NCBI RefSeq assembly: GCF_011317445.1
Contig: NZ_JAAAPL010000001.1
Span: forward strand, 992,001-1,056,000
Length of the DNA: 64,000 nucleotides
From: Chelativorans multitrophicus
GTDB taxonomy: Bacteria; Pseudomonadota; Alphaproteobacteria; Rhizobiales; Rhizobiaceae
Direction: 5' to 3'
Part shown: in pieces, positions 22,577-40,306 of the stretch
Layout of the letters: every line of letters begins with the position of its first letter
Position numbering within the stretch: position 1 is the first letter of the stretch
Notes under the pieces: generated by a model
Told to the model about the DNA's origin: nothing
Database searches by the model: none
Seen by the model: only the letters and a program-made list of their open reading frames with translations
Translations under genes and position numbers: made by a program

Positions 22577-22590
22577 TCATTCCCACTCGA
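22577..22590 (+). repeat. Left copy of guaA-type attachment repeat (att)
   Basis: TCATTCCCACTCGA here is identical to 40293-40306, the stop codon and last codons of guaA, in the same orientation. Identity continues loosely (GTCC at 22593-22596 matches the guaA copy). There is no guaA gene at this site, so the repeat is best explained as the distal att site of an element integrated at the guaA 3' end. An 8-base inverted repeat (22521-22528 with 22558-22565) lies just outside it. Confidence 0.7.
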
Positions 22591-22849: not shown

Positions 22850-22923
22850 CGACTGCAGGGCTATGCCAGTTCGATCCCGCTTATCAGATCACCGTGCCGA
22901 AAGAGCTGGGCGAGGCACGCTGA
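22850..22923 (+). pseudogene. Tail of an AbiEi-type antitoxin
   Basis: The frame ending in TGA at 22921-22923 closes with CQFDPAYQITVPKELGEAR. That resembles the C-terminal strand of AbiEi-family antitoxins, which ends near '...Y.ITVP..L'. The stop overlaps the ATG of the next gene (TGATG), as is normal for abiEi-abiEii pairs. Upstream sequence in this frame shows no helix-turn-helix domain, so only the tail remains. The stretch from 22591 to 22850 otherwise shows nothing beyond a small hairpin (CGTCGG/CCGACG at 22642-22658). Confidence 0.35.
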
Positions 22924-23443
22924 TGGCTTTTGCTGATGCCTACCGCAACCAGGTCGCACTCCTGATCCGCACGCTACCTTCCGTCGCAGCGGAAGAGTGT
23001 TTCGCGATGAAGGGCGGCACGGCTATCAATCACTTTATCCGCGACCTGCCTCGGCTCTCGGTGGATATCGACCTCACCTATCTGCCTGTTCAGGATCGTG
23101 CGACCTCGCTAACCGCGATCGATGTGGCGATGCTGCGCATCGCCGAGCGCATCACTAAAGTCGTCCGTGGCGTCCACGTCGCACCTTCGCGCTCGCGTGA
23201 GAATGTCGTCACCAAGCTCGTAGTCCGGAGCGACGGTGCGCTGATCAAGATCGAGGTCACGCCGGTCCTGCGGGGCTGCGTGTTCGAGCCGGGGATGCGT
23301 CCAGTCTCATCCAGTGTCGAAGACGAGTTCGGCTTTGCGGAAATGCGGATCGTCTCCTTCGCCGATCTCTATGCTGGGAAGATTGTGCCGCACTCGACCG
23401 GCAGCATCCACGCGATCTCTTCGACGATCGTATTGTTTACTAG
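22923..23443 (+). pseudogene. AbiEii-family nucleotidyltransferase toxin, frameshifted and truncated
   Basis: From ATG 22923 the sequence shows the family core: ECFAMKGGTAINHFIRDLPR, then LSVDIDLTYLP (nucleotidyltransferase GG-T and DxD), then IKIEVTPVLRG and EDEFGFAEMRIVSFADLYAG. Family members continue KIVAALDRQHPRDLFDV. Here the original frame turns to nonsense after KIV, while AALDRQHPRDLFDDRIVY follows in another frame from 23387 and meets TAG at 23441-23443. One base is therefore missing near 23385-23387, and about 100 C-terminal residues are gone. These toxins act in type IV toxin-antitoxin and phage-abortive systems and often ride on integrative elements, which fits this site. Confidence 0.75.
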
Positions 23444-23493
23444 TAATTTGCGCGACACGTAGGGAACTGGCGTAGAAACACCACCTAATCCTG

Positions 23494-23554: not shown

Positions 23555-23899
23555 ATGGCCGACCTCCTTAACGACAGAGCGATCAGCGACCTCGAACCAC
23601 CTGGTTCAGGCCAGTACCGCGCACGCGATACACAGCTGAAGGGCTTCCATGTCGTGGTCGCGAGGCGGAGGAAGATCTTCGCAGTCCATGGCGATCTGCG
23701 AAGAAACGGCAAGCGCGTCGCATCGATCTCTGTCCGTATAGGTGACGCAGTATCGATCTCCACTCGCGAGGCACGCGCGACCGCGAAGACGTATCTCGCT
23801 CAGATCTCGAAGGGTGAGCATCCTTCCCGAGGATATCACGGCACACGCAGACGAGATCGCTCTGACGCAGGATTATTGGTGGATGTACTCGAGCATTGA
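23555..23899 (+). pseudogene. N-terminal remnant of a tyrosine integrase (DUF4102-type)
   Basis: The first 90 or so residues (LLNDRAISDLEPPGSGQYRA, then GFHVVVARRRKIFAVHGDLR and REARATAKTYLAQISKGEHP) match the arm-type DNA-binding domain of P4-like phage and island integrases. After about 23822 the family similarity stops and the frame closes at 23899, overlapping the end of the neighbouring GNAT-fusion gene. Core-binding and catalytic domains (R...HxxR...Y) are absent. It is a deletion scar, about 1 kb inside the left att copy. Confidence 0.75.
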
Positions 23900-25063
23900 A
23901 CTGTATGGCGTGAAGCCAACCCGCATCCAGAACACCCTGCCGCCAGGATTGTTTTCGATCACCTCGAGAACAACACGTTCGCCTTCCTGGAATCTGGCGG
24001 CAGCTAGTGCATCGAACGCTGCCTTTCCAAAATTGTCTCGCCGATAGTGGCGCACAATGTAGAACTGCTTCAGAAATACGCACTGACGGTTGGGATTGGT
24101 GGGGTCATTGTCGCGGCGATGTGTGGCGTAGCCAACAATCTCGTCGCCGACCTTAAATAGATCGACACTCCAACCCTCTTTGTTTACAAAGTGGCGGAAT
24201 CGCTCCTCCATTTGCGCTACCGTCATTGGATTGCGGTGACCTTCATCGTCAGCCAATTCGCGATTCATCCGCGCCAAAAGCGGGTAGTCTTTCGCCGAGT
24301 GCCTGCTGATTATGATCTTGCCCGTGAACCGGGTCTCTTGGGGACCGTCGACTCCCCTGGGCGAAACCGACGATCCTGTATTGCTTCCATGGGGGGCCAG
24401 GTATTGCAGGACGACATCGCGCTCGCCAGTAATATGGCTACGCAGAGCGTCGACCACATGTTGTGCGTTCCGACTCCGCAATGCGCGTAGGATCGCCGCA
24501 TGGTCCAACGCCGCGGCTCTCAGCTGCTCGGGGTTCGGGCTCATCATCAGGTGCACCAATCGCAGTTCGGTCGCCAGTCTCTTGAAGGTTTCAGTGATCC
24601 TATCGTTCTTGCCGGCACGGCAAAGTGCTGTATGAAATGCGGCATCGGATTCCATCATTCGACTGCGTGAATTCGAGAGTGCGGCCGTTTCAGTGTCGCG
24701 CATTGCAACTTCGATGGCGTTCAGATCGCTGGGCGTCGCCAATCGTACAGCTTCGAGCGCTGCGGTGGATTCGAGAATCTCACGCAAGCTGTAGATGTCG
24801 GCAACCTCTCTCTGGCTGAACTTCTTCACGTATGAGCCACGGAAGGCATGCGTTTCCAGGAGACCCATCTCCTCCAGCTGCCTTGCCGCCTCACGCACGG
24901 GGCCCCTGCTGACCTCGAGGCGCCCAGCGATCTCCATCTCGTTCAGTTTGTCTCCCGGCTTCAGTTCCCCGTTCAAAATTATGTTTGAGATCTGCTCTCG
25001 GACGGTTTCGGCCAACGGCCGCCGCTTCACACTCAAATCTGTCCCCTTGCCTTCAATTTTCAT
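23873..25063 (-). CDS. GntR/FCD regulator fused to a GNAT acetyltransferase domain
   Basis: The 396-residue protein joins two domains rarely seen together. Residues 15-80 are a GntR winged helix (AETVREQISNIILNGELKPG, EMEIAGRLEVSRGPVREAAR). Residues 85-220 are an FCD effector domain with metal-ligand candidates Asp140, His144, His188 and His210. Residues 250-396 are a GNAT domain close to the stand-alone GNAT of the facing operon (28037-28516): both share EGHRNPMTV, VDLF/IDLF, VGYAT, QFY, VLEV, NPGG and FTPYS/FAPYS, about half of positions by eye. The acetyl-CoA loop differs: RGGGVG in the enzyme, RRDNFG here (341-346). It is divergent from the operon at 25193 and probably its regulator. Confidence 0.9.
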   Translation of the reverse strand: MKIEGKGTDLSVKRRPLAETVREQISNIILNGELKPGDKLNEMEIAGRLEVSRGPVREAARQLEEMGLLETHAFRGSYVKKFSQREVADIYSLREILESTAALEAVRLATPSDLNAIEVAMRDTETAALSNSRSRMMESDAAFHTALCRAGKNDRITETFKRLATELRLVHLMMSPNPEQLRAAALDHAAILRALRSRNAQHVVDALRSHITGERDVVLQYLAPHGSNTGSSVSPRGVDGPQETRFTGKIIISRHSAKDYPLLARMNRELADDEGHRNPMTVAQMEERFRHFVNKEGWSVDLFKVGDEIVGYATHRRDNDPTNPNRQCVFLKQFYIVRHYRRDNFGKAAFDALAAARFQEGERVVLEVIENNPGGRVFWMRVGFTPYSSMLEYIHQ

Positions 25064-25119
25064 GGCGATCCACTCCCTTCAGCCATTTATGCGCTACGCC
25101 GTAATTTTGCAAAGTTTTT

Positions 25120-25131
25120 ATTGTTGACAAT
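25120..25131. promoter_or_regulatory. Putative GntR operator overlapping a -35 box
   Basis: ATTGTTGACAAT is a perfect ATTGT-TG-ACAAT dyad between the divergent GntR-GNAT gene and the catabolic operon. The TGT-n-ACA core is the known GntR/FCD operator form. TTGACA at 25124-25129 could serve as a -35 for the rightward operon, though the -10 is weak. Binding here would repress the operon and probably the regulator too (inference). Confidence 0.55.
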
Positions 25132-25192
25132 TTAACGACTTCGAACCAAGCTCTCTCCATCGGCACCAAGACCGACGAAGTGCAGGGGACAA

Positions 25193-26500
25193 ATGCAGCG
25201 CGACATATTCAAGAGCGAGTTCAAGGAGGAGCCTTACTGGTGGGATTTGGCACGGCCATTCTCATCGGTCGCGAGCCTCCCGGCGCGCAGCGACCTCGTT
25301 ATAGTCGGAGCCGGGCTTTGTGGGCTCAGCGCCGCTTTGCGCGCCTTGGAGCTGGGCGTCCGTCCGCTCGTGCTTGATGTCGGCTTCATAGGCGGCGAGG
25401 CCAGCTCGCGCAGCGGCGCTATGGTTTCAAGTGGACAGAAATTTCTGATCAGCGGCGCGGCTCAGTCACTAGGAAGCGAAATTGTCAACGAACTAATAAA
25501 CGTGCATGCCGATGCGTTTCGCTATGTGCGAACCTTGGCGACGAAGGGTGGAGTGGAAGGGCAGTTTCGAACTTCCGGAAGGCTCTTTCTTGCTGCTGTA
25601 CCAGAGCACTTCCAACGCTTCGCGCAGTACGCAGAGATACTGAATGAAATTGCGCAAGTCACCGCGCGGACGGTTTGCAAACAGGATCTCCGTTCTGAAC
25701 TGGCAAGCCAGCGGTATTACGGCGGCCTGTTGGTAGAGGAATTCGGCGGTCTGCATCCCTCGCTCTTCGCCTGCAACCTCGCGCGGGAAGTTCAGCGGAA
25801 AGGTGCAGAACTTCGTTCGCATACTCGGGTGCTGGCCGTGAAAGCCCGCGGGTCGGAATTTATCGTCGAGACCGACGCGGGGTCGGTGCGGGCTGGGCAG
25901 GTACTGTTCGCCACTAACGGCTACACCGACAATGCAATGCGCCTTGTCCGGCGTCGCATCGCGCCTGTCGGCTCATTCATGATCGCGACCGAAGAATTGG
26001 GTACCGACCAGGTTGCCGCGGCGATGCCCGGGCTTCGCATGTATTCAGACACGAAGCGTAATCTTTGGTTCTTCCGGCCGTCGCCCGATGGGAAGCGAAT
26101 ACTATTCGGCGGACGGCCTGGAATTCTGCCTCGCGCTCCTCGCCAGGCGGCAATTAAACTACACCAATACATGTCCTTGGTTTTTCCGTCATTGCATGAT
26201 GTGAAGATCACCCACGCCTGGACGGGGACCATCGCGATGACACGGCGGCAGGTCCAGCACATCGGTCAAAGAAAGGGAATCTGGTTCGCCGTCGGCTGCA
26301 ACGGCAGCGGCGTCGCCATCATGCCATGGGTTGGCCGGCTGGCGGTCGAGCGAATGCTTGGCACGCGGACGGAGTCGACGGTTTTCGAACGAATCGCCTT
26401 CGATGTAATGCCGACCATTGAAGGCAAACCATGGTTTGTTCCGTTCGCGGCTGGATGGTTCGGCTTAAACGATTGGATCGATCGCATGCGGCATGCGTGA
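25193..26500 (+). CDS. FAD-dependent amine oxidoreductase, DAO/PuuB-like
   Basis: The 435-residue protein has an N-terminal Rossmann FAD site (LVIVGAGLCGLSAALRALEL, about residues 35-54), then GEASSRSGAMVSSG, and a C-terminal half of the DAO family (VGSFMIATEEL, TKRNLWFFR, ILFGGRP, THAWTGTIAMTRRQ, GCNGSGVAIMPWVGRL). The arrangement parallels PuuB, the gamma-glutamylputrescine oxidase of E. coli, as does the PuuC-like dehydrogenase next to it. I infer oxidation of a primary or N-acylated amine to an aldehyde with release of ammonia and peroxide. The ATG follows GCAGGGG. It is the first gene of the operon and is separated from the divergent GntR-GNAT regulator by 129 bases. Confidence 0.85.
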   Translation: MQRDIFKSEFKEEPYWWDLARPFSSVASLPARSDLVIVGAGLCGLSAALRALELGVRPLVLDVGFIGGEASSRSGAMVSSGQKFLISGAAQSLGSEIVNELINVHADAFRYVRTLATKGGVEGQFRTSGRLFLAAVPEHFQRFAQYAEILNEIAQVTARTVCKQDLRSELASQRYYGGLLVEEFGGLHPSLFACNLAREVQRKGAELRSHTRVLAVKARGSEFIVETDAGSVRAGQVLFATNGYTDNAMRLVRRRIAPVGSFMIATEELGTDQVAAAMPGLRMYSDTKRNLWFFRPSPDGKRILFGGRPGILPRAPRQAAIKLHQYMSLVFPSLHDVKITHAWTGTIAMTRRQVQHIGQRKGIWFAVGCNGSGVAIMPWVGRLAVERMLGTRTESTVFERIAFDVMPTIEGKPWFVPFAAGWFGLNDWIDRMRHA

Positions 26501-26525
26501 AAGCAGAAACATCGGAGGCAAAGCA

Positions 26526-28040
26526 ATGGCTGACATAACAGATACGAACAGAGACGAATGGAAGGCAGCCGCCCAGAAAGCCTCCATCGAAGGCCGAGCC
26601 TTTATAGGTGGCAGATATATTGACGCGGCGGACGGAGACAGCTTCGATTGCATAAATCCTGCAACCGGGCGGGTTCTTGGGAAGATTGCCTCTTGCAAAT
26701 CTACCGACATCGACCTGGCCGTGAGATCAGCAAGACGCGCCTTTGATGGCGGCGCCTGGTCCTGCTGTGATCCGAGCGAACGTCGGAAGGTTCTCATTCG
26801 GCTTGCCGATCTCATCGAAGCAGCGAGGGACGAACTCGCGCTGCTTGAGACTCTAGATACCGGAAAGCTCATCAGGGATTCCGTAACCCTGGATATTCCT
26901 TCTTCGGCGGCCGTTTTTCGCTTTTATGGGGAAGCCTGCGACAAGCTGCTTCACGAGGTGGTTCCAGTAGGCCCTTATGCCTTTGCCTCGATTACAAAAG
27001 AGCCTGTCGGCGTAGTCGGCGCTGTGATCCCCTGGAATTTTCCCTTGAAGATGGCAGCATGGAAATGCGCGCCTGCTCTCGCCGTAGGCAACAGCGTGGT
27101 GCTGAAACCGGCAGAACAATCACCCTTAACGGCGTTAAAACTGGCCCAGCTCGCGGTAGAGGCGGGAGTTCCGGAAGGCGTTTTCAATGTCGTCCCGGGC
27201 TTTGGCCCGGAAGCCGGAGCTGCGATTGGACTTCATTCAGGAATTGATTGCGTAGGCTTCACGGGCTCGACTGAAATTGGAAAACGATTTCTCGCCTATG
27301 CCGGGCAGTCAAACATGAAGCGTGTCTGGCTGGAGTGCGGTGGAAAAAGTGCCTGCATCGTATTTCCGGACGCAAAAAATCTCGAGGCGGCTGCGAAAGC
27401 CGCGGCGCTGGGCATTTTTTTCAATCAGGGCGAAGTCTGTTCGGCGACGTCGCGATTGTTCGTTCATCGAGACCTGCTCGACGATTTTACAACCCTGTTA
27501 GTAGAAGCGAGCAATTCCTTCAAACCCGGCGATCCGCTGGAAGTCAGTTCCGGCATGGGTTCGATGATCAGTGAAGAGCAGACGACAAGGGTCATGTCGT
27601 ATATCGAAAAGGGCAAGGAGGAGGCAGACCTGATCGCCGGTGGCAGTCGGGTTCTCCAGGAGACCGGAGGGTATTTCATCGAGCCCACGATCTTCCGGAA
27701 TGTGGATCCGCGAAGCGTAATCGCATGCGAAGAAATCTTCGGCCCCGTCTTGTCCATCATTCCTTTCGGGTCGGAGTCTGAGGCTGTGGAGCTGGCGAAT
27801 GCGTCAATCTACGGGCTGGGCGCTTCCGTTTGGACAGGCGATCTTGATCGCGCGTTCCGCCTTTCGCGCAGACTGCATGCGGGCAGTATCAGCATAAACG
27901 CGGTCGACCATGTTGATTTACGGACGCCGTTCGGAGGCGTGAAGCAATCTGGAAACGGCCGGGATCTTTCGCTCCATGCGCTCGACAAATATTGCGACTT
28001 AAAGACGACGTGGATGGCCGTTCAAGGGAGTGCCGCATGA
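26526..28040 (+). CDS. NAD(P)-dependent aldehyde dehydrogenase, PuuC-like
   Basis: The 504-residue enzyme starts at ATG 26526, chosen for GGAGG nine bases upstream over an earlier in-frame start. All aldehyde dehydrogenase hallmarks are present: Asn171 in PWNFP, FTGSTEIGKR, the base Glu270 in WLECGGKS and the nucleophile Cys305 in FFNQGEVCSATSR. The C-terminus (FGGVKQSGNGRDLSLHALDK) is very like E. coli PuuC, which oxidises gamma-glutamyl-aminobutyraldehyde. This suggests the same step for the aldehyde made by the upstream oxidase. Its TGA overlaps the ATG of the GNAT gene (ATGA), so the two are translationally coupled. Confidence 0.92.
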   Translation: MADITDTNRDEWKAAAQKASIEGRAFIGGRYIDAADGDSFDCINPATGRVLGKIASCKSTDIDLAVRSARRAFDGGAWSCCDPSERRKVLIRLADLIEAARDELALLETLDTGKLIRDSVTLDIPSSAAVFRFYGEACDKLLHEVVPVGPYAFASITKEPVGVVGAVIPWNFPLKMAAWKCAPALAVGNSVVLKPAEQSPLTALKLAQLAVEAGVPEGVFNVVPGFGPEAGAAIGLHSGIDCVGFTGSTEIGKRFLAYAGQSNMKRVWLECGGKSACIVFPDAKNLEAAAKAAALGIFFNQGEVCSATSRLFVHRDLLDDFTTLLVEASNSFKPGDPLEVSSGMGSMISEEQTTRVMSYIEKGKEEADLIAGGSRVLQETGGYFIEPTIFRNVDPRSVIACEEIFGPVLSIIPFGSESEAVELANASIYGLGASVWTGDLDRAFRLSRRLHAGSISINAVDHVDLRTPFGGVKQSGNGRDLSLHALDKYCDLKTTWMAVQGSAA

Positions 28041-28516
28041 CCCTCCATCCTGAAATACGCGTTCGACCGGCCACTAGGGCCGACCTGAAACTTGTAGCGC
28101 GGATGAACAAGGAACTTATCGAAGATGAGGGCCATCGAAATCCGATGACTGTCGATCAGTTGGAGCAAAGAGCTGCCGGGTTCATGGATGAATCCGGGTG
28201 GAGGATCGATCTATTCGAGCAGGCGGGGAGCGTTGTTGGATATGCAACCTGGAAACTCGAGGACGACAACACGGAACCGAGCGGAAAGCGCGTCTATCTC
28301 CGGCAATTCTATGTGGCGCGCGAATCGAGGGGCGGCGGAGTTGGACGGCAGGCTCTTAACGCATTGATGGGTCGCGAATTTCCGGCCGACACGCGGGTGC
28401 TCCTCGAAGTGATGCAGTCGAATCCCGGCGGGCAGCAATTCTGGAGCAGGATGGGATTTGCTCCCTATTCCCACCTCCTGGAAAGCAGGTCCGTGAACTC
28501 ACCCAGAAGCAAATAG
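28037..28516 (+). CDS. GNAT-family N-acetyltransferase, paralogue of the regulator's C-terminal domain
   Basis: The 159-residue single-domain protein starts at an ATG overlapping the aldehyde dehydrogenase stop. Motif A is intact: QFYVARESRGGGVGRQALNA, with the acetyl-CoA pyrophosphate loop R98-GGGV-G103. Motif B follows (VLLEVMQSNPGGQQFWSRMG). The best match in view is the C-terminal domain of the divergent GntR fusion. In this operon I infer N-acetylation of an amine or amino acid before the oxidase and dehydrogenase act, doing what gamma-glutamylation does in the Puu pathway. Acetylation of a toxic intermediate or a protein is an alternative. A 12-base gap leads to the lyase gene. Confidence 0.88.
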   Translation: MTLHPEIRVRPATRADLKLVARMNKELIEDEGHRNPMTVDQLEQRAAGFMDESGWRIDLFEQAGSVVGYATWKLEDDNTEPSGKRVYLRQFYVARESRGGGVGRQALNALMGREFPADTRVLLEVMQSNPGGQQFWSRMGFAPYSHLLESRSVNSPRSK

Positions 28517-28528
28517 AGAGAGCAATCG

Positions 28529-30037
28529 ATGAACATTAATGTCCCGGATGCCACCCGGATCGGCCGCGCCACGGGAGCAAAAGCGCCTGAGTTCCAAGAG
28601 CTATATGACTTCGACGCGGCAGCGCTGACCCTTACGAGCGCGGTCTTTCCCTACGACAGTCAAATACATCGTGCGCATGTCGTGATGCTGACGGAACAGG
28701 GAATTCTCACTGTAGAGGAATCAGCAACCATTCTCAGTGGACTGGCCCAGGTGGACGAGCTCGCCGCCACTGATGGGTCATTGCGCACCTATCTTCCTTA
28801 CGAGGCTGCGTTGAAGCGAACAATCGGCTCGGTTGCGGGAAAAATGCATATCGGACGAAGCCGTAACGATCTCGCAAATGCCGGAAAGCGGATGTTTCTG
28901 CGCGATCAGCTCTTGCGCACTATTGAGGCGGTGATCGGCTATCGCGAAGCGGTTGTGCACAAGGCGGCCGACCATCTCGATACGGTGATGGTAGTATATA
29001 CTCAGCGCAAGGAGGCGCAGCCTATTACGCTCGGCCATTATCTCATGGCGATAAGCGAAAATCTTGCGAAGAACCTCGACAGATATCGCGAACTATATGC
29101 GCGCATCAACCTGTGCCCGTTGGGAGCGGCTGCCACCGCCGGCACAGGCTGGCCGTTGAACCGCGACCGCACGTCAGCTCTGCTGGGTTTTGATGGGTTG
29201 GTCGTGAATTCGATCGAGGGCGTCGCGGGCTGGGACCACGTCGCGGAGCATGCCTTTGTCAATGCCGTCTTCCTGAGCGGCCTCAGCCGTCTGGCTTCGG
29301 AAATCCAGCTCTGGTCCACTGACGAATATCAAGTAGCGGAACTGGATGCGTCATTCGCAGGCACGAGCAGCATCATGCCGCAGAAGAAGAATCCAGACTC
29401 GCTGGAACGCAGCCGAAAAGCGGCATTTGCAGCGATGGGTCCGCTTGTAGGTATCCTCACCTCGCTAAATGCCATCGAATATCAATATAGCGCTGCCCGC
29501 GTTGAGTTGGAACCACGCTCCATCGACGCCTTGATCGCCGCAACGCACGCGATGACAGGGGTAGTGCGGACACTGCATCCTAACAAGGAACGCATGCGGC
29601 AATACGCTGCAGAAAACTATTCGACCATGACCGACCTCACCGACATGCTCGTTAGACGCGTGGGAATCGACTATCGCGAAGCGCACGAGATAGTGGCTCA
29701 TGTCGTGATCACAGCCATCGAAAAAGGCATCAAGGCAAACAAAATTGGTCTCGATCTGGTCCAGGAGGCGGCAGTTGCCCAGACCGGCGCGGGAATAAAT
29801 GTGAGTGCCGACGACATCAAGGACGCGCTCGACCCGTGGCAGAACGTCCTACGGCGCGAAGGCAAGGGAATGCCGGCCCCGATGTCCGTGAAGGCCAGCA
29901 TCGATGATGCAATGGCGGAACTTCACAAAGATCGTGCATGGCTCGCAAATGCGACGCAAGCTCTTGCGAACGCAAAGCAAACACTGGCGGACAGCGTGCA
30001 GCAGATCATCCAAACCGACAGAAAATACCTGCGCTGA
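28529..30037 (+). CDS. Argininosuccinate-lyase-like C-N lyase (EDDS-lyase-like)
   Basis: The 502-residue member of the aspartase/fumarase superfamily has all three signatures: HIGRSRND (107-114), YTQRKEAQPITLGH (157-170) and TSSIMPQKKNP (279-289, catalytic Ser in the flexible loop). It fits argininosuccinate lyases (CPLGAAATAGTGWPLNRD) but is some 40 residues longer. Its R112, N113, T158, S281, M283 and N288 coincide with positions I recall for ethylenediamine-disuccinate lyase of Chelativorans. Residue 159, normally the conserved His of YTHLQ, is Gln. No arginine gene is nearby, and an importer follows, so catabolic C-N cleavage releasing fumarate plus an amine is more likely than arginine synthesis. 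Substrate is inferred only. Confidence 0.85.
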   Translation: MNINVPDATRIGRATGAKAPEFQELYDFDAAALTLTSAVFPYDSQIHRAHVVMLTEQGILTVEESATILSGLAQVDELAATDGSLRTYLPYEAALKRTIGSVAGKMHIGRSRNDLANAGKRMFLRDQLLRTIEAVIGYREAVVHKAADHLDTVMVVYTQRKEAQPITLGHYLMAISENLAKNLDRYRELYARINLCPLGAAATAGTGWPLNRDRTSALLGFDGLVVNSIEGVAGWDHVAEHAFVNAVFLSGLSRLASEIQLWSTDEYQVAELDASFAGTSSIMPQKKNPDSLERSRKAAFAAMGPLVGILTSLNAIEYQYSAARVELEPRSIDALIAATHAMTGVVRTLHPNKERMRQYAAENYSTMTDLTDMLVRRVGIDYREAHEIVAHVVITAIEKGIKANKIGLDLVQEAAVAQTGAGINVSADDIKDALDPWQNVLRREGKGMPAPMSVKASIDDAMAELHKDRAWLANATQALANAKQTLADSVQQIIQTDRKYLR

Positions 30038-30121
30038 GGCTGATGGATGATCGGTCACTTCAAGGAGAAAAAAGGTCTAGTTATCCAATGAGTTAGAATA
30101 ACTAAAAACAGGGGATTCGCA

Positions 30122-31732
30122 ATGCGCATTCAAATGGGAATGAAAGCAAAGGCGGCGTTCATAACTATCGGGGCAATAATTACCGTCGCCAACAGCCTAA
30201 GCAACGCCTCCGCTCAGACGAGCGGAGGAGATCTGGTCACCGTAATGCGGGCGGATCCAAAAGGTCTTATACCTGCATTTCCCCACGGAGGTGACGCTCG
30301 GATCATCGCAGCAAAGATCTTTGAGGGCCTGATATCCTACAGCACGGATTTAAGGCCGCTCCCAGGGCTCGCCAAGAGCTGGGAAATCTCGAGCGATGGC
30401 TTGACCTATACGTTCAAACTCCAAAACGGCGTGCATTGGAACGATGGCAAGGAGTTCTCGTCGGCCGACGTCCTATTCAGTCTGAACGAAATGCTTCCCG
30501 CCACCAATGCGGCGGCGAAGCAGGCGCTTGAAGAGGTGAAATCCATTGAGGCGCCCGACGCGGAAACGGTCGTGATCACCCTCAAGCGGCGCGTGCCCTA
30601 CTTCCTTATGCTCTTCCCGGGCCAACAGATGCCCATCATGCCTAAGCATATCTATGAGGGCACCGACTACATAAAGAATCCAGCGAATCTAATGCCAATC
30701 GGCACGGGTCCATTCGAGTTGGTCGAATGGAAGCGTGGTTCCTACGTTCGTCTTGAGAAGAACGAGAATTACTGGAAGAAGCCGGAACCCTACCTGGATT
30801 CAATCACCTATCGGATCATGCCGGATGCATCTTCGCGCGCGATCGCCCTGGAAAGTGGCGATGTCAATGTCGCGACGTCGGGAGAATTGAGCAGTTCGGA
30901 CATTGCGCGCTTCAAGACATCCGGCGAGTTTCGGATGGATTCCAAAGGTTGGGAATATTTCGCCAGCCAGGCGCTTCTGGTCATCAATGTGCGGAACCAC
31001 GTTCTACAGGATGCCCGGTTCAGACAGGCACTCTCCTATGCACTCGACAAGAGATTCATCCTAGATCACGTGTGGAACGGCACCGGTGCAATTTCGACCG
31101 GGCCCGTTAGCCACTCTATCCCGTTCTATACCGATAAAATTTCGAGCTACAGCTTCGACCCCAAGAAAGCGAGCGCCTTGCTCGACGAGATTGGGTTGAG
31201 GGCAGGTGCCGACGACAAGAGGCTCGATGCCCAAGGCAATCCGATTACTGTTAAACTGCTGATATTGCCCGGAGAACCTTATGGCAGGTTGGCGGAGTAT
31301 ATTAGGGAGGCGTGGCGCGGCATTGGCATCGCCACGGATCTGCAGGCAGTCGACCTAGGCAACTGGTATGACCGCATGGCCAACTGGAACTTCGATGTCG
31401 CCATCGCAAATCTAGGCCAATTTGCCGATCCCGGGATCGGAGCTAGGAGCTACTATCATTCGGGCAACATCAAAAAAGGTGTGATGTTCTCGAACATGGG
31501 CGGCTACAAGAACGGGGATGTCGACGCACTGTTTGATCAGGCTTCACTCGAGATGGATCCTGAACGCCGCGGCGAGATCTATCACCAGATCCAGCAGAAG
31601 ATCGTCACTGATGCTCCCGCAATCTGGTTAATTGACCTCGAGCGCTTCACCGTCAGCCAAAAGAATGTTCACAACCTGGTGACGGACGCGTTCGGACCAT
31701 GGGGTTCATGGGCAAGCGCCTACATTGAATAG
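30122..31732 (+). CDS. ABC importer substrate-binding protein, peptide/opine family 5
   Basis: The 536-residue protein has a signal peptide (AKAAFITIGAIITVANSLSNASA-Q). The rest is of the DppA/OppA/NikA family, with YTFKLQNGVHWNDGKEFSSA, PIGTGPFELVEWKRGSYVRL, and late EMDPERRGEIYHQIQQ. Proteins of this family take up peptides, opines, nickel chelates and, in EDTA degraders, metal-chelate aminopolycarboxylates. The gene is 84 bases after the lyase and is followed by two permeases and a fused ATPase, so the importer is complete. The likely ligand is the substrate of the upstream enzymes. Confidence 0.92.
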   Translation: MRIQMGMKAKAAFITIGAIITVANSLSNASAQTSGGDLVTVMRADPKGLIPAFPHGGDARIIAAKIFEGLISYSTDLRPLPGLAKSWEISSDGLTYTFKLQNGVHWNDGKEFSSADVLFSLNEMLPATNAAAKQALEEVKSIEAPDAETVVITLKRRVPYFLMLFPGQQMPIMPKHIYEGTDYIKNPANLMPIGTGPFELVEWKRGSYVRLEKNENYWKKPEPYLDSITYRIMPDASSRAIALESGDVNVATSGELSSSDIARFKTSGEFRMDSKGWEYFASQALLVINVRNHVLQDARFRQALSYALDKRFILDHVWNGTGAISTGPVSHSIPFYTDKISSYSFDPKKASALLDEIGLRAGADDKRLDAQGNPITVKLLILPGEPYGRLAEYIREAWRGIGIATDLQAVDLGNWYDRMANWNFDVAIANLGQFADPGIGARSYYHSGNIKKGVMFSNMGGYKNGDVDALFDQASLEMDPERRGEIYHQIQQKIVTDAPAIWLIDLERFTVSQKNVHNLVTDAFGPWGSWASAYIE

Positions 31733-31741
31733 TGATCAGCT

Positions 31742-32710
31742 ATGCAGTTTCTCGGTTACGTCTCCTGGCGCCTGCTGAAGGCTGCCGCTTTGCTGGTGGC
31801 CGTGATATCCTTGAATTTCCTGTTGATCAGGATGGTTCCTGGAGATCCCGCGACCGTTATTGCCGGTGAAAGCGGCATGGCCGACGCGGATTTCGTAGCA
31901 CGAATCCGTGAAATATATGGGTTGGACCAGCCTTTGCTGGTCCAACTGAAAACCTACCTCGTGAATACGCTTTCTCTGGATTTCGGCCATTCGTATCGCC
32001 TCCAGACGGATGTACTTGCGCTGATCATCGAACGGCTTCCGGCAACGATCGCCCTAACTGGCGCCGCATTCATATTCTCATTGGTGGTGGGGGTGAGTCT
32101 TGGCGTGATCGCGGGTTCGCGCCCAGGCAGCAAAGTGGACGTCGCCATCCAGTTCGTATCCGTCGCGCTTTATTCCGTTCCTGTGTTCTGGATCGGCTTG
32201 ATGTTGATACTCGTGTTCTCGCTGAAGCTACATTGGCTTCCAGCATCAGGTACGGGATTTGAATACGGACAAATCCCCGGTGTGCTGGAATTTCTGAGTC
32301 ACCTGCTGTTGCCGATGATCACGCTGTCGCTGTTCTACATCGCCGTCTACATTCGGCTTGCGCGCACCTCAGTCGTCGACGTAACGCATCAGGATTTTGT
32401 CAGGACCGCGAAGTCGAAGGGCCTCCCTTCGGCGTTCATTCTGCGCAAGCACGTGCTCCCGAACGCCATATTGCCGGTAGTCACCATGGCTGCGCTTCAG
32501 GCGGGGCACCTCGTCAGTGGATCGATAGCCGTCGAAACGATCTTCGCTTGGCCAGGCATCGGGAGACTTGGCTACGAGGCACTCGTTCAGCGCGACTATA
32601 ACATGCTGTTGGGTGTGTTCCTGGTCACGGCAACCATGGTCGTTCTGCTGAATCTCGTCGCTGACGTTCTGTATGTTGTCGTTGATCCAAGAATAGAGCT
32701 GGTGCGATGA
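31742..32710 (+). CDS. ABC importer permease, DppB type
   Basis: The 322-residue membrane protein starts with the typical YVSWRLLKAAALLVAVISLN, LIRMVPGDPA and the external YGLDQPLLVQ segment. Further membrane segments follow, and the EAA loop is near RTAKSKGLPSAFILRKHVLP. It ends DVLYVVVDPRIELVR, the usual C-terminus of DppB proteins. The stop overlaps the next ATG (ATGA at 32707-32710). It forms the translocation pore with the DppC-type partner. Confidence 0.92.
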   Translation: MQFLGYVSWRLLKAAALLVAVISLNFLLIRMVPGDPATVIAGESGMADADFVARIREIYGLDQPLLVQLKTYLVNTLSLDFGHSYRLQTDVLALIIERLPATIALTGAAFIFSLVVGVSLGVIAGSRPGSKVDVAIQFVSVALYSVPVFWIGLMLILVFSLKLHWLPASGTGFEYGQIPGVLEFLSHLLLPMITLSLFYIAVYIRLARTSVVDVTHQDFVRTAKSKGLPSAFILRKHVLPNAILPVVTMAALQAGHLVSGSIAVETIFAWPGIGRLGYEALVQRDYNMLLGVFLVTATMVVLLNLVADVLYVVVDPRIELVR

Positions 32711-33561
32711 GGTATTTTTATTCGGTTCCCAGGAGTGTGCTTACCTTTTGCGGTTTTAATTGGCAGATCGCAAATGGCGCGGGCATCATCGCCCTATTGG
32801 CGCTGGTTGCATTTGGCGCATCACCAATCTCGCCTTACGGGGCGTGGGAGATTGCGGGCACTCCATGTCTTCCACCGCTTTCGCCGGAACATCTGCTCGG
32901 CACCGATATGCTGGGTCGCGACGTCCTTTCCGGCGTGATCTACGGTGCTCAATCGTCGTTGCTGGTCGGACTCGCTTCAGCAGGCGCGGCAATTGTCTTG
33001 GGAATCGTTGTAGGCGCATTTGCCGGCTACTATGGCGGAATCGTCGACGATATTTTGATGAGGTTCACCGAGTTCCTGCAAACTATGCCAGGCTTGGCAC
33101 TCGCGCTTGTTTTGGTCGCCGTTCTTGGGCCATCGATCTGGTCCGTCGTGATCGCCATCACAATTGTGAGCTGGGCACCGGTCGCCCGTTTGATCCGTGC
33201 TGAATTCTTATCGCTGCGCGGTCGGGAATTCGTTCTGGCTGCAATCGTGCTCGGTCAGCGAAACACAAAAATCATTCTTTCCCAAATGCTACCGAATGCG
33301 CTCGGGCCAATTGTGTCTACGGCATCCCTGAAGGTGTCGAGCGCCATACTGACAGAGTCGACGATAAGCTTTCTCGGGCTCGGCGACACGACTAGAATGT
33401 CGTGGGGCATGATGATCGGTAACGCGCAGGGGCAACTCCGGGAAGCATGGTGGATGAGCGTTTTTCCGGGGGTTGCGCTGTTTGTGACCATACTCGGACT
33501 TACGCTTCTCTCTGACGGAATTGCGCGCTCAGGTAGTGCACGCAAGCAAAGCATGCTGTGA
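32707..33561 (+). CDS. ABC importer permease, DppC type
   Basis: The 284-residue partner permease has the DppC hallmark segment LSPEHLLGTDMLGRDVLSGV and the following YGAQSSLLVGLASAGAAIVL. The EAA loop is near LRGREFVLAAIVLGQRNTKI, and SFLGLGDTTRMSWGMMI lies towards the end. Start codon and upstream stop overlap by four bases. It is followed within a few bases by the fused ATPase. Confidence 0.92.
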   Translation: MRYFYSVPRSVLTFCGFNWQIANGAGIIALLALVAFGASPISPYGAWEIAGTPCLPPLSPEHLLGTDMLGRDVLSGVIYGAQSSLLVGLASAGAAIVLGIVVGAFAGYYGGIVDDILMRFTEFLQTMPGLALALVLVAVLGPSIWSVVIAITIVSWAPVARLIRAEFLSLRGREFVLAAIVLGQRNTKIILSQMLPNALGPIVSTASLKVSSAILTESTISFLGLGDTTRMSWGMMIGNAQGQLREAWWMSVFPGVALFVTILGLTLLSDGIARSGSARKQSML

Positions 33562-33568
33562 GGACAAA

Positions 33569-35197
33569 GTGCTCGAGATAGAAAAGCTTAGCATCGTTCT
33601 TCCTTCCGGCGCCGACAGGGCTCTCGCGATTAAGGACGTTTCGTTCAGCGTGAAGTCCGGTTCAACGCTTTGTCTTGTGGGCGAATCCGGGTCGGGGAAA
33701 TCGGTTATCGGACAAGCCGTTGCAGGGCTCCTACCGCAAACCCTTCACTGTTTGAAACAGAGTTCCATACGCCTTGGCGGCCGAAACTTGCTGTCGCTAG
33801 ACGAATGTGCGTGGCGCCGTATTCGAGGGCGGGAAATCGGAATGGTGTTTCAGGAGCCGATGACTGCCTTGAATCCGCTGATGCCAGTCGGGCAGCAGAT
33901 TGCTGAAGTTTACCGGTCACACGGCTTGCGCCTCAGGAAGGCGGAAGTCCGGGACCGGGTTGAAGGTTTGCTCGAGCGTGTCGGGATAAAGGACCCGGCC
34001 CGCATCTCGAAATCCTACACGTTCCGCATGTCAGGCGGTCAGAGGCAGCGTGCTATGATAGCCATGGCCGTGGCAATGAAGCCCAAGGTGCTTATTGCCG
34101 ATGAGCCGACCACAGCGCTCGATGTGACGACGCAAAGACAGGTTCTTGACTTGTTGGCCGACTTTCAGGCTGAAACCCGAATGGCACTCATATTCATCAC
34201 GCATGATTTTGGGATCGTGGCGGATATTGCCGACGAAGTCGCTGTCATGGAAAGCGGAAACCTTGTCGAGTTCGGCTCGAAGGAAGATGTTTTGGCTCGC
34301 GCGCAGCACCGCTACACTCGAAAATTGCTCGCAGCTGTTCCGCGCCTTCATGAGCATAAGGCTTCGGTTGCCGAGCGATCGACACCGGTGCTCGAAGTGC
34401 GCGGCTTGAGCAAAACGTATGGAGTGGCAACGAGCATCTTCAGAAGGCAGGACATGAGGGTCCTGAACGATGTCAATTTCAAGGTTTGCAAAGGCGAGGT
34501 TGTCGCGCTTGTAGGGGAGTCCGGATCCGGCAAATCAACAATTGCAAAATGCCTGACGCGTCTCACGTCGATAGACACCGGTTCGATCCGTCTTGACGGG
34601 GCAGATATGCTGAGCCTCAAAGGAGAGGCCCTAATGAAACTGCGCCGCAAGGTGCAGATCGTATTCCAAGATCCGTACGGATCTCTGAATCCTCGCCAGA
34701 AGATCGTGGATGCGGTATCGGCCGGACCAATTGCGCAGGGGGTTGCGTCACGCGAAGCCCGTGAACTCGCGGAGCACCTGCTCACGATTGTCGGTCTGGG
34801 ACGAAATGCACTCGACCGTTATCCTCATGAGTTCTCCGGCGGGCAACGTCAGCGCATTGGTATCGCCAGGGCTCTCGCCGCGAAGCCGGAGGTTCTTATT
34901 GCGGACGAAGCTGTCTCTGCTCTCGATGTTACGGTTCAAGCGCAGATTTTGCGACTTCTTGCGGACCTAAGGGATCGACTTGGACTCACCATGCTTTTTA
35001 TCACGCACGACCTGCGCGTCGCCGGTCAAGTGAGCGATCGCATAATCGTCTTGAAGGCTGGGAATGTAGTTGAAGAGGGTCCCACTCAAGCAATATTCAC
35101 CAAGCCATCAAATCAGTACACTTACTCTCTTCTGCAGGCAATTCCCGGAATCTCATCAAACGAGTCCGCGTTGGTTCGGAATAAGTGCGTGTGCTAA
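33569..35197 (+). CDS. ABC importer ATPase, two fused nucleotide-binding domains (DppD-DppF type)
   Basis: The start is placed at GTG 33569 with AGGA from the previous stop region just upstream (542 residues); an in-frame start at 33521 would overlap the permease by 40 bases. Two complete ATPases are fused. The first has Walker A GESGSGKSVIG, signature MSGGQRQRAM and Walker B VLIADEPTTALD. The second has GESGSGKSTIAK, FSGGQRQRIG and VLIADEAVSALD. A linker with SVAERSTPVLEVRGLSKTYG separates them. Fused DppDF proteins are common in rhizobia. This completes the importer. Confidence 0.92.
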   Translation: MLEIEKLSIVLPSGADRALAIKDVSFSVKSGSTLCLVGESGSGKSVIGQAVAGLLPQTLHCLKQSSIRLGGRNLLSLDECAWRRIRGREIGMVFQEPMTALNPLMPVGQQIAEVYRSHGLRLRKAEVRDRVEGLLERVGIKDPARISKSYTFRMSGGQRQRAMIAMAVAMKPKVLIADEPTTALDVTTQRQVLDLLADFQAETRMALIFITHDFGIVADIADEVAVMESGNLVEFGSKEDVLARAQHRYTRKLLAAVPRLHEHKASVAERSTPVLEVRGLSKTYGVATSIFRRQDMRVLNDVNFKVCKGEVVALVGESGSGKSTIAKCLTRLTSIDTGSIRLDGADMLSLKGEALMKLRRKVQIVFQDPYGSLNPRQKIVDAVSAGPIAQGVASREARELAEHLLTIVGLGRNALDRYPHEFSGGQRQRIGIARALAAKPEVLIADEAVSALDVTVQAQILRLLADLRDRLGLTMLFITHDLRVAGQVSDRIIVLKAGNVVEEGPTQAIFTKPSNQYTYSLLQAIPGISSNESALVRNKCVC

Positions 35198-35567: not shown

Positions 35568-36764
35568 ATGGAATCTTTCAGTTCACTTCTTGCCCAGGGA
35601 GGCAGTTCGGCTTGGCTATTCATTCCTAGTGCGATCCTGTTGGGCGCGCTGCATGGTCTGGAGCCCGGTCATTCAAAGACGATGATGGCAGCGTTCATTG
35701 TAGCGGTCAGGGGAACCGTCGTGCAGGCTGTCTTGCTCGGACTGGCCGCTACGGTGTCTCACACGCTGGTGGTTTGGGGTATCGCGTTAGGCGGCATGTA
35801 TCTCTTCTCAAATCTGGACGCTGAGGTCGCCGAGCCTTACTTCCAGTTGGTTTCAGCAATCATAATCATAGGTGTCGCCGCCTGGATGTTCCGCCAGACC
35901 TGGAGGGAGCGGGTAGCTGCAAAGCAGTATGAGCGCGACGTCGCGCGGTGGGAGAAGACACGCGACAAATCCGTGATCACGCAAAAAGTTGATACCGGAC
36001 ACGGGTTCATGTCCATGGAGATCACTCCGCAGAAGCCAGCGTTCTGGCGCCTGAAGGTCGTGAGTGGTGATAAGTGGCTTGCCGATGACGTGATCGTTAC
36101 CACCGAGCGGCCAGACGGATCGAAGCAGAAGTTCACCTTCGTCGACCGTGACGGTTACATGGAATCGATCGAAACGATTGCGGAGCCATATAATTTCACC
36201 GCGCGCCTGAGCCTGGATCATGGCGACCATGAGCATGATTACGATCTGGCATTCCAGCAGGAATCGACCGCTGTTTCCAAGGATGATTCCGGATTGAACC
36301 TGCAGACGGAGGGGTACCAGGACGCTCATGCCCTCTCGCACGCCAATGATATCCGCAAGCGTTTCGCAAACCGGCAGGTTACGACCTGGCAGATCATCCT
36401 GTTCGGTCTTACCGGCGGTCTCATTCCCTGTCCCGCTGCGATCACCGTTCTCCTGCTGTGTCTCCAGCTTGAGAAGCTATCGCTCGGCGCGGTTCTTGTT
36501 CTCTGCTTCTCAATCGGATTGGCAATCACATTGGTCGTGGTCGGAGCAGTGGCTGCGGTCGGCGTCAGGAAGGCGACCCAGAAGTTCAGCTGGCTTTCGA
36601 CGGCGGCCGCGAGAGCACCATATTTTTCCAGCGCACTGATCGTGCTGGTCGGGCTCTACATGGGCTATCACGGCATCGAAGGAATTATGAACCCGCACCA
36701 TGAGGAGGAGGCGGCCTTGAGCAGGACGAATCCCGTTGTCGAACGGGTGCAGTCTTCAATGTGA
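35568..36764 (+). CDS. RcnA-like nickel/cobalt exporter with a globular insert replacing the His loop
   Basis: The 398-residue membrane protein aligns with E. coli RcnA at both ends: FIPSAILLGALHGLEPGHSK near the start, then the AATVSHTLVVWGIA region, and YQDAHALSHANDIRKRF and GLTGGLIPCPAAITVLLLC after the loop. RcnA exports Ni and Co. E. coli has a short histidine-rich loop between segments 3 and 4. Here about 130 residues (roughly 125-250) form what looks like a beta-rich domain from GHGFMSMEITPQKPAFWRL to YNFTARLSLDHGDHEHDYDL. Only its end keeps a few histidines. Similar domains occur twice in the protein at 38013. It heads the metal module, with the regulator next. Confidence 0.88.
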   Translation: MESFSSLLAQGGSSAWLFIPSAILLGALHGLEPGHSKTMMAAFIVAVRGTVVQAVLLGLAATVSHTLVVWGIALGGMYLFSNLDAEVAEPYFQLVSAIIIIGVAAWMFRQTWRERVAAKQYERDVARWEKTRDKSVITQKVDTGHGFMSMEITPQKPAFWRLKVVSGDKWLADDVIVTTERPDGSKQKFTFVDRDGYMESIETIAEPYNFTARLSLDHGDHEHDYDLAFQQESTAVSKDDSGLNLQTEGYQDAHALSHANDIRKRFANRQVTTWQIILFGLTGGLIPCPAAITVLLLCLQLEKLSLGAVLVLCFSIGLAITLVVVGAVAAVGVRKATQKFSWLSTAAARAPYFSSALIVLVGLYMGYHGIEGIMNPHHEEEAALSRTNPVVERVQSSM

Positions 36765-36877: not shown

Positions 36878-37168
36878 ATGAAAAAACGTTCCGATGGCCA
36901 CACCATCCATCATCATCACGAAACGATCGCCAAGAGGTTGAAGCGTGCCAATGGACATTTGAGGATGGTAGTCGAAATGCTGGAGGATGGGCGGGAATGC
37001 CTAGATATCGCCCAACAACTGTTCGCTGTTGAAAAGGCGATCACCCAGGCCAAGAAGACCCTCATCCAGGATCATCTCGATCATTGCCTCGAAGAGGTGG
37101 TCGGAACGCTTCCTAGAGAGGAACGTAGGCCGATCGACGAGTTCAAGGCGATCACCAAGTATCTTTAA
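36878..37168 (+). CDS. CsoR/RcnR-family metal-sensing repressor
   Basis: The 96-residue all-helical repressor fits the family in length and in the KRLKRANGHLRMVVEMLEDG region that contacts DNA. Candidate ligands are Cys41 (GRECLDIAQQ), His66 and Cys70 (DHLDHCLEE), with spacings of 25 and 4 as in CsoR and RcnR. The Cys-His-Cys set is that of copper-sensing CsoR; Ni/Co-sensing RcnR has Cys-His-His with an N-terminal His. This protein also has an N-terminal HHHH stretch (residues 11-14), which could supply RcnR-like ligands. It lies between an RcnA-like exporter and a DedA gene and presumably controls both. Confidence 0.9.
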   Translation: MKKRSDGHTIHHHHETIAKRLKRANGHLRMVVEMLEDGRECLDIAQQLFAVEKAITQAKKTLIQDHLDHCLEEVVGTLPREERRPIDEFKAITKYL

Positions 37169-37221: not shown

Positions 37222-37228
37222 AGTGATA

Positions 37229-37927
37229 ATGGATCAGCTTATCGAGTATGCGGTGCTCTTTATCGAACACAATTCGGTCTATGCGACGGTGGCAGCGTTT
37301 CTGATCGCATTTGGAGAGTCGCTCTTCATAATCGGATTCGCCATACCAGCCACCGCTCTGATGATAATCCTCGGAGGGCTAATTGGCAGCGGGACCATTG
37401 AAGCCGGGCCGATCGTCGGTTCCGCAATTTTAGGTGCGATCCTAGGAGACGCCGTTTCGTACTGGCTGGGACGTAAGCTGGGTTGGCAATTCGCCTACAG
37501 GTGGCCGTTGAAGAAATATCGAAACGGCACTGCGCGCACACGACTCTTCTTCAGGAAATACGGGCTGGCGTCCATCTTCCTTGGCCGCTTCCTTGGACCG
37601 ATACGTTCCACCGTTCCGCTCCTGGCCGGCATGATGGTGATGAGTCATTTCCGCTTCCAAATTGCGAATGTTTTGTCTGCGATCGCGTGGAGCATCTGCA
37701 TGCTGATCCCCGGCTGGATAGCCGGACAGAGCGCTGCTGAATTTGAAGACGGCACATATCTGGAGCGTGGAATGATCATCGCTGCGGTCAGCCTTGCGAT
37801 CGTGTTCGTGTCCGGAGTTGTCGCGAAGCGAATATTTCGGCCCTCCCATGATGAGGTGAGATCCAGGCGCGCAAGAGTACACGGCTGCTGCGGAGGCGCG
37901 CATGCCTCGTGCTCGCATCATCATTAA
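37229..37927 (+). CDS. DedA-family membrane protein with Cys/His-rich tail
   Basis: This has 232 residues from ATG 37229, which sits seven bases after AGGA; a GTG six bases earlier is less likely. DedA motifs are clear: FGESLFIIGFAIPATALMII, ILGDAVSYWLGRKLG and FLGRFLGPIRSTVPLLAGMM (the G-R-F-x-x-x-x-R motif). DedA proteins are lipid transporters or proton-dependent flippases that affect envelope stress and metal or drug resistance. The last 20 residues (VHGCCGGAHASCSHHH) form a compact Cys/His cluster not typical of the family and fit metal binding. The gene shares its upstream motif with the next gene and belongs to the metal module. Confidence 0.88.
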   Translation: MDQLIEYAVLFIEHNSVYATVAAFLIAFGESLFIIGFAIPATALMIILGGLIGSGTIEAGPIVGSAILGAILGDAVSYWLGRKLGWQFAYRWPLKKYRNGTARTRLFFRKYGLASIFLGRFLGPIRSTVPLLAGMMVMSHFRFQIANVLSAIAWSICMLIPGWIAGQSAAEFEDGTYLERGMIIAAVSLAIVFVSGVVAKRIFRPSHDEVRSRRARVHGCCGGAHASCSHHH

Positions 37928-40292: not shown

Positions 40293-40306
40293 TCATTCCC
40301 ACTCGA
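40293..40306 (+). repeat. Right copy of attachment repeat within guaA 3' end
   Basis: TCATTCCCACTCGA is the reverse complement of the last codons and stop of guaA and is repeated exactly at 22577-22590. Integration here leaves guaA intact because the element restores its end. The guaA 3' end is an established target of Mesorhizobium tripartite symbiosis elements (attG/IntG). Confidence 0.75.

What the first reader, a model, noticed from the sequence alone, without database searches (positions are those of the whole stretch)
23873..35197. Candidate undescribed catabolic system: import, C-N cleavage, N-acetylation, oxidation
The operon encodes a PuuB-like oxidase, PuuC-like dehydrogenase, GNAT, EDDS/argininosuccinate-lyase-like enzyme and an Opp-type importer. 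Read together: the importer brings in an N-succinyl-type amine or aminopolycarboxylate, the lyase releases fumarate and a free (di)amine, the GNAT caps one nitrogen, the oxidase makes the aldehyde and the dehydrogenase the acid. This would be an acetyl-capped counterpart of the gamma-glutamyl Puu pathway. Opp-type binding proteins and lyases of this kind are known from chelator-degrading bacteria.
Basis: inference. Interest (0 to 1): 0.85.

Follow-up and report, generated by a model that had tools for sequence, protein, structure and literature searches.

The report
EDDS-chelator degradation operon on genomic island
This is the home operon of an already known enzyme that cuts the metal-binding compound EDDS; what looks new is a likely acetyl-protected route for the leftover diamine, an unusual fused regulator, and signs that the whole set arrived as an inserted DNA island.

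Summary
The gene order is as reported, but the lyase is not a candidate. All 502 residues are identical to EDDS lyase of Chelativorans sp. BNC1 (PDB 6G3D-6G3I), reported to split (S,S)-EDDS reversibly into ethylenediamine and two fumarates. The genome also carries an EDTA-monooxygenase gene cluster, so it is very likely an EDTA degrader. Import, N-acetylation and oxidation remain inference. I favour an acetyl-capped route: the GNAT caps the aminoethyl nitrogen of N-(2-aminoethyl)aspartate or ethylenediamine, the flavin oxidase gives N-acetylaminoacetaldehyde, and the PuuC-like dehydrogenase gives N-acetylglycine. My searches of the held papers listed no description of these steps.

(1) The operon lies in a 17.7-kb island at the 3' end of guaA: a 14-bp guaA-end repeat occurs exactly twice in the genome, at the two edges, and 3 of 12 testable relatives carry a related integrase just after guaA. 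(2) The GntR regulator is fused to a GNAT domain homologous to the operon's acetyltransferase; this domain has lost an acetyl-CoA-loop glycine, which suggests a sensor. The island also carries a nickel/cobalt efflux pump and a metal-sensing repressor.

The parts
22577..22590 (+). left island border: 14-bp direct repeat of the guaA 3' end
   Evidence: exact match to 40293-40306; 19 of 22 bases over 22; the 14-mer occurs 2 times in the 4.82-Mb genome, reversed control 0
22863..23462 (+). AbiEii-type nucleotidyltransferase, island passenger
   Evidence: Pfam PF08843, 3.9e-23; no NCBIfam match
23555..23899 (+). remnant of an integrase N-terminus (Arm DNA-binding domain)
   Evidence: Pfam PF13356, 1.1e-7
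23873..25063 (-). GntR/FCD regulator fused in one ORF to a C-terminal GNAT domain (residues about 250-392)
   Evidence: Pfam GntR, FCD, Acetyltransf_1; in the model block pLDDT is 72-95 from residue 251 on, the rest of the model is poor; FCD part holds D140-x3-H144 plus H188 and H210 (sequence; their role as metal ligands is recalled)
25120..25131 (.). candidate operator, perfect palindrome ATTGTTGACAAT in the divergent intergenic region
   Evidence: 1 match in the window, 0.05 expected; 5 of 100 shuffles had one
25193..26500 (+). FAD-dependent amine/amino-acid oxidase (DAO family)
   Evidence: Pfam PF01266, 5.1e-51; 26% to PuuB, 41% to two plasmid-borne oxidases
26493..28040 (+). aldehyde dehydrogenase, PuuC-like
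   Evidence: NCBIfam PuuC 614 bits, cut-off 850 not reached; 51% to E. coli PuuC, motif NQGEVC present
28037..28516 (+). GNAT N-acetyltransferase with canonical acetyl-CoA loop RGGGVG
   Evidence: Pfam (from the upstream TTG start), alignment, model pLDDT 85.6; nearest structures include polyamine acetyltransferases
28529..30037 (+). EDDS lyase
   Evidence: 502/502 identical to 6G3D-6G3I; [quoted passage not shown]
30122..31732 (+). Opp/Dpp/Nik-type periplasmic binding protein
   Evidence: Pfam PF00496, 7.8e-86; no NCBIfam cut-off reached
31742..32710 (+). ABC permease B
   Evidence: Pfam PF00528
32707..33561 (+). ABC permease C
   Evidence: Pfam PF00528
33521..35197 (+). fused double ATPase of the importer
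   Evidence: two ABC_tran stretches; 43% to the ATPase of the EDTA cluster
35568..36764 (+). nickel/cobalt efflux transporter (NicO type)
   Evidence: NCBIfam NF007454 414.7 bits, cut-off 195; Pfam NicO
36878..37168 (+). metal-sensitive transcriptional repressor (Trns_repr_metal family)
   Evidence: Pfam PF02583, 6.8e-21; NCBIfam RicR, RcnR and FrmR all below cut-off, so the metal is not fixed
37223..37927 (+). DedA-family membrane protein
   Evidence: Pfam VTT_dom; NCBIfam DedA below cut-off
39173..39997 (-). tyrosine integrase ORF, shortened at its catalytic end
   Evidence: Arm-DNA-bind_3 (5e-19) and positions 3-66 of 172 of Phage_integrase, the latter at 23.8 bits, under the 27.1 cut-off
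40293..40306 (+). right island border = 3' end of guaA (guaA is 40293-41852, - strand)

Best explanation
An EDDS catabolic operon carried on a guaA-integrated island. The Opp-type importer takes up EDDS or a related aminopolycarboxylate (inferred). EDDS lyase splits it reversibly into fumarate and N-(2-aminoethyl)aspartate (AEAA), then fumarate and ethylenediamine (published for the identical enzyme; the name of the intermediate is recalled). The GNAT acetylates the free aminoethyl nitrogen of AEAA or ethylenediamine, which pulls the reversible lyase forward and stops AEAA or the later aminoaldehyde from cyclising (inferred). The flavin oxidase then makes N-acetylaminoacetaldehyde, either by cutting N-acetyl-AEAA to aspartate or by deaminating N-acetylethylenediamine (inferred). 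The PuuC-like dehydrogenase oxidises it to N-acetylglycine (inferred), which a deacetylase from elsewhere would turn into glycine. The GntR/FCD-GNAT protein controls the divergent operon, probably at ATTGTTGACAAT, and responds to a pathway ligand (inferred).
For: Lyase identical to EDDS lyase, reported to give ethylenediamine plus two fumarates reversibly. Overlapping gene order. GNAT with intact acetyl-CoA motif and nearest structures among small-molecule GNATs, including SSAT, PaiA, thialysine acetyltransferase and Dpa with 1,3-diaminopropane. ALDH 51% to PuuC, whose annotated substrate is a gamma-glutamyl-capped aminoaldehyde. The same genome has a 923.6-bit, near-full-length match to EDTA monooxygenase 5DQP and beside it a binding protein with all four reported EDTA contacts of EppA. 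The EppA paper (passages) says that BNC1 uses EDDS. Perfect palindrome in the divergent promoter region.
Against: No enzyme but the lyase has a known substrate. The GNAT fold matches are tied with aminoglycoside and protein acetyltransferases and cannot fix a substrate. The oxidase is only 26% to PuuB. No deacetylase was recognised among the operon and island proteins scanned. No second genome with the same gene set was found (lyase at E 1e-100 in 1 of 397 genomes of the order; at 1e-80 in 1 of 16 of the genus), so conservation of the neighbourhood gives no support. The binding protein shares 23% with the EppA-like protein and clearly only one of its four EDTA contacts. The promoter scan found nothing in the divergent region.
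Confidence: 0.5

Rival explanations
1. The oxidase and dehydrogenase degrade uncapped AEAA or ethylenediamine (to aspartate or ammonia plus aminoacetaldehyde, then glycine). The GNAT is an accessory that detoxifies excess diamine or modifies a protein, and is not in the main route.
For: Relatives of the oxidase sit near amino-acid ABC transporters (L128, L129), one of them next to an aspartase-type lyase (L128), and none of the 9 oxidase neighbourhoods searched holds a relative of the GNAT, so the oxidase family does not need an acetyl cap. No deacetylase was recognised in the operon.
Against: The GNAT gene overlaps the ALDH gene by 4 bases and ends 12 bases before the lyase gene. Free aminoacetaldehyde is unstable (recalled).
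Confidence: 0.25
2. The natural substrate is another N-substituted aspartate (toxin A, aspergillomarasmine or an unknown metallophore); EDDS is a fortuitous substrate.
For: EDDS lyase makes toxin A from 2,3-diaminopropionate and fumarate and accepts many amines.
Against: A crystal structure with bound (S,S)-EDDS exists. EDDS is itself called naturally occurring. An ALDH suits an aminoethyl product better than diaminopropionate (inference).
Confidence: 0.17
3. Ordinary argininosuccinate lyase in an unrelated amino-acid operon.
For: NCBIfam's argH model scores it 344.8 against a cut-off of 279.5, and the PDB entries carry that name.
Against: Identical to EDDS lyase. The genome has a far better argH match on contig C12, 547.8 bits over a partial 386 aa.
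Confidence: 0.02

Closest known systems
EDDS lyase of Chelativorans sp. BNC1 (PDB 6G3D-6G3I)
   Same: 502 of 502 residues identical
   Different: nothing in the protein; the passages I saw of three papers on it (PMC12363623, PMC10792612, PMC9486952) do not describe the operon around it
EDTA cluster of the same genome (G000:C8, about 468-478 kb; epp/emo/ida names taken by analogy with PMC7312458)
   Same: Opp-type importer with fused ATPase next to catabolic enzymes, a GntR-type regulator and a DAO-type oxidase (regulator and oxidase labelled by eye and BLAST)
   Different: monooxygenase instead of lyase; no GNAT or ALDH seen by eye in the ORF list; binding proteins share 23%; no BLAST match between the two oxidases at E 1e-3
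E. coli Puu pathway
   Same: cap the amine, oxidise, dehydrogenate; ALDH 51% to PuuC
   Different: no gamma-glutamyl ligase or hydrolase among the proteins scanned; oxidase 26% to PuuB; the cap would be acetyl
N-acetylputrescine route of diamine breakdown (recalled)
   Same: acetyl cap, oxidase, aldehyde dehydrogenase
   Different: C2 diamine, fed by a lyase from a chelator
Fosfazinomycin/kinamycin acetylhydrazine pathway (recalled)
   Same: GNAT paired with a fumarate-releasing lyase of this superfamily
   Different: biosynthetic, hydrazine chemistry

Membership tests
EDDS lyase | sequence of the characterised enzyme, including R112, N113, Q159, N288, D290, Y320 | tested here: met
   100% over 502 aa; all six residues present; residue list from PMC12363623, passages
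EDDS lyase | cleaves (S,S)-EDDS | not testable with these tools
   published for the identical protein
Argininosuccinate lyase | best argH match of the genome | tested here: not met
   contig C12 copy scores 547.8 bits, this one 344.8
Puu pathway | glutamate-putrescine ligase (PuuA) and gamma-Glu-GABA hydrolase (PuuD) | tested here: not met
   neither among the operon proteins scanned or the island proteins scanned; the rest of the genome was not searched for them
Puu pathway | PuuB-type oxidase and PuuC-type dehydrogenase | tested here: inconclusive
   26% and 51% identity; NCBIfam PuuC cut-off not reached
EppA-type aminopolycarboxylate-binding protein | cationic residues R56, R74, K470, R480 | tested here: inconclusive
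   R at the R74 column, R one column off R56, H and F at the other two, at 23% identity
GNAT N-acetyltransferase | fold and [QR]xxGx[GA] acetyl-CoA loop (motif recalled) | tested here: met
Catalytic GNAT (regulator's C-terminal domain) | [QR]xxGx[GA] loop (motif recalled) | tested here: not met
   RRDNFG: the first glycine is Asn; activity itself not testable here
Polyamine N-acetyltransferase | acetylates a diamine | not testable with these tools
   resemblance only
guaA-integrated genomic island | direct repeat of the guaA 3' end at both edges | tested here: met
guaA-integrated genomic island | integrase beside the attachment site; site used in relatives | tested here: met
   window ORF 39173-39997; related integrase after guaA in 3 of 14 other genus genomes with guaA, 12 of which have 1.5 kb of flank held; one of the three is fragmentary
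guaA-integrated genomic island | intact integrase, able to excise | tested here: inconclusive
   ORF matches only positions 3-66 of the 172-position catalytic-domain profile, under the cut-off
guaA-integrated genomic island | empty site with conserved flanks in relatives | tested here: inconclusive
   one protein from each flank had no match at E 1e-60 in the 15 other genus genomes

The most novel reading that the evidence does not exclude
The regulator is an enzyme turned sensor. A GNAT relative of the operon's own acetyltransferase, with its acetyl-CoA loop spoiled, is fused to a GntR/FCD repressor and reads the diamine or its acetylated form. The operon is thus controlled by a catalytically dead relative of its own capping enzyme, on a mobile island that turns chelators into food and also carries a pump for the nickel/cobalt the chelator brings in.
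Probability: 0.25. Interest if true: 0.7.

Novelty: new variant of a known kind. Interest (0 to 1): 0.5.

Why it matters
EDDS is promoted as a biodegradable replacement for EDTA, and its lyase is a much-used biocatalyst, but what happens to the diamine after the cut was not described in any passage I could read. The operon makes that question directly testable and may also explain how EDTA-derived ethylenediamine is used. The island borders suggest how the trait arrived and why it is rare in the genomes searched. The GntR-GNAT fusion offers a clear case for testing whether a metabolic enzyme became a sensor.

Tried and rejected
Argininosuccinate lyase: rejected on identity to EDDS lyase and a better argH elsewhere. 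Conserved neighbourhood as evidence: none found. The only near lyase (L009, Bradyrhizobium LTSP885, 61%) has none of the other operon genes in its 14.8 kb except ABC ATPases at 29-30% (the contig ends 3.4 kb from the lyase) and differs at three of the six active-site residues (N113D, Q159H, Y320F). GNAT relatives: 4 of 397 genomes in the order including our own at E 1e-20, 2 of 385 in the class including our own at E 1e-15, plus one plasmid record of 72,556. In the five loci with such a GNAT (L094, L095, L096, L127, L140) tblastn at E 1e-5 finds no relative of EDDS lyase or of the oxidase; L095 and L096 have a 32.5% ALDH. In 9 oxidase neighbourhoods (L117-L123, L128, L129) tblastn at E 1e-8 finds no relative of the GNAT enzyme or of EDDS lyase; the aspartase-type lyase of L128 is a distant relative only (27% over 217 aa). 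The regulator's GNAT is closer to a stand-alone GNAT, L094 (52-53%), than to the operon enzyme (46-49%), so a recent duplication inside this operon is not supported. Whole-regulator model: mean pLDDT 67.7, pTM 0.42, so I drew no domain arrangement from it. Sigma-70 scan: no hit in the divergent region; promoter-like (1, expected 6.0) and terminator-like (8, expected 10.7) sites did not exceed shuffles. The EDTA cluster stretch lacks the palindrome core TTGTNNACAA. tRNA scan of the window: none. Flanks outside the island: the two proteins tried had no match at E 1e-60 in the 15 other genus genomes, so the empty site was not shown by synteny. Literature: 10 of 10 searches used; no listing showed a paper on the downstream steps; I opened passages of six papers (PMC7312458, PMC12363623, PMC10792612, PMC9486952, PMC8979120, PMC10311521). 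Two subscription papers on the lyase are not held, so 'undescribed' is limited to the held library. My notebook entry 1 wrongly lists 6RX8 as identical: that chain differs at residues 290 and 320; entry 2 gives rougher GC numbers.
Full report
WHAT IS THERE. Eight + strand genes run from 25193 to 35197 with gaps of -8, -4, 12, 84, 9, -4 and -41 bases, divergent from a regulator at 23873-25063 across 129 bases.

THE LYASE IS KNOWN. Its 502 residues are identical to the chain of PDB 6G3D-6G3I; the chain of 6RX8/6RXA differs at residues 290 and 320. [quoted passage not shown] BNC1 as the source. PMC9486952 (passages) says that the enzyme reversibly deaminates (S,S)-EDDS to ethylenediamine and two fumarates. 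The best argininosuccinate lyase match of the genome is on contig C12 (547.8 bits over a partial 386 aa).

THE HOST. The window lies in a 4.82-Mb, 15-contig genome that carries a 923.6-bit match over 412 residues to EDTA monooxygenase 5DQP. Upstream of it is a binding protein with Arg56, Arg74, Lys470 and Arg480 exactly where they are published for EppA. The EppA paper (PMC7312458, passages) states that BNC1 and its relative DSM 9103 use EDDS, and that ethylenediamine from EDTA can serve as nitrogen source. I did not establish which strain the window is.

RARITY. At E 1e-100 the lyase is in 1 of 397 genomes of the order, the window's own, and at 1e-80 in 1 of 16 of the genus.

THE ISLAND. The 14 bases at the very end of guaA (40293-40306) recur at 22577-22590 in the same orientation and nowhere else in the genome; the reversed-pattern control gives 0. 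The stretch is 17,730 bases. Between the copies lie the operon, an integrase ORF next to guaA with a shortened catalytic domain, a second integrase remnant, an AbiEii-type gene, a nickel/cobalt efflux transporter, a metal-sensitive repressor and a DedA protein. GC content per kilobase is 0.52-0.58 from 22 to 39 kb, against 0.56-0.64 from 14 to 22 kb and 0.55-0.62 from 39 to 44 kb, so the ranges overlap and the contrast is clearest on the left. guaA was found in 15 of 16 genus genomes. Of the 14 that are not our own, 3 have a related integrase just after guaA (63%, 50% and a fragmentary 41%), and 2 of the 14 had under 600 bases of flank to look at. The empty site was not shown: one protein from each flank had no strong match in the other 15 genus genomes.

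THE REGULATOR. One ORF joins a GntR/FCD repressor, with D140, H144, H188 and H210 at places where FCD proteins hold a metal (recalled), to a GNAT domain 46-49% identical to the operon enzyme. In the acetyl-CoA loop it reads RRDNFG; the enzyme, L094, L140 and L127 keep the glycine, and the frame-broken L095 does not. A spoiled loop with a kept fold suggests ligand sensing, but a residual enzyme is not excluded. The domain is closer to the stand-alone L094 (52%) than to the operon enzyme. A perfect palindrome, ATTGTTGACAAT, lies in the divergent region; the promoter scan found nothing there.

THE IMPORTER. The binding protein is Opp/Nik type. Against the EppA-like protein it shares 23% and has an arginine at the Arg74 column, the position that the EppA paper finds most sensitive in binding (26-fold) and highly variable in homologues; the Arg56 equivalent is one column off, and the other two cations are not there. 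This is inconclusive.

LIMITS. There is no expression, activity or growth data. No second instance of the operon was found. The literature claim is limited to the open library searched.

Noticed in passing
G000:C8, L124 7000-17600 (contig about 27-38 kb): Two argininosuccinate-lyase-like genes about 1.4 kb apart in a cluster with tripartite-tricarboxylate-type transporter parts, an enolase-superfamily-like gene, an M24-peptidase-like gene and an octopine-dehydrogenase-like gene (labels other than the lyases by eye): possibly another catabolic cluster for N-substituted amino acids.
   Followed up: partly
G000:C8 49106, 68727, 449257: Three further proteins over the cut-off of the nitrilotriacetate-monooxygenase family besides the EDTA monooxygenase; the first two lie on either side of a third lyase paralogue at 63409.
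   Followed up: partly
window 28529-30037 and L002, L003, L004, L005: NCBIfam's argH equivalog cut-off (279.5) is passed by EDDS lyase (344.8) and by three more paralogues (322.6, 279.9, 315.9; partial translations) besides the likely true ArgH (547.8), so automatic annotation could call five argininosuccinate lyases.
   Followed up: yes
window 35568-37168: Nickel/cobalt efflux transporter followed by a metal-sensitive repressor right after the operon, perhaps to handle metals that arrive with the chelator.
   Followed up: partly
L095 9197-13007 and L096: GNAT relative whose two matching pieces lie in different frames, beside a 32.5% ALDH and what reads like a class III aminotransferase: another amine-type setting for this GNAT family (aminotransferase label by eye).
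   Followed up: partly
L128 7986-12253: Relative of the oxidase (41%) directly before an aspartase-type lyase on plasmid pRACO34Ab: a second pairing of this oxidase family with a lyase of the fumarase/aspartase superfamily.
   Followed up: partly
window 21618-22506: LysR-type regulator split over two overlapping frames just outside the left island border (substrate domain, HTH part by eye).
   Followed up: no
window 22863-23462: AbiEii-type nucleotidyltransferase just inside the left border; no partner gene was looked for.
   Followed up: no
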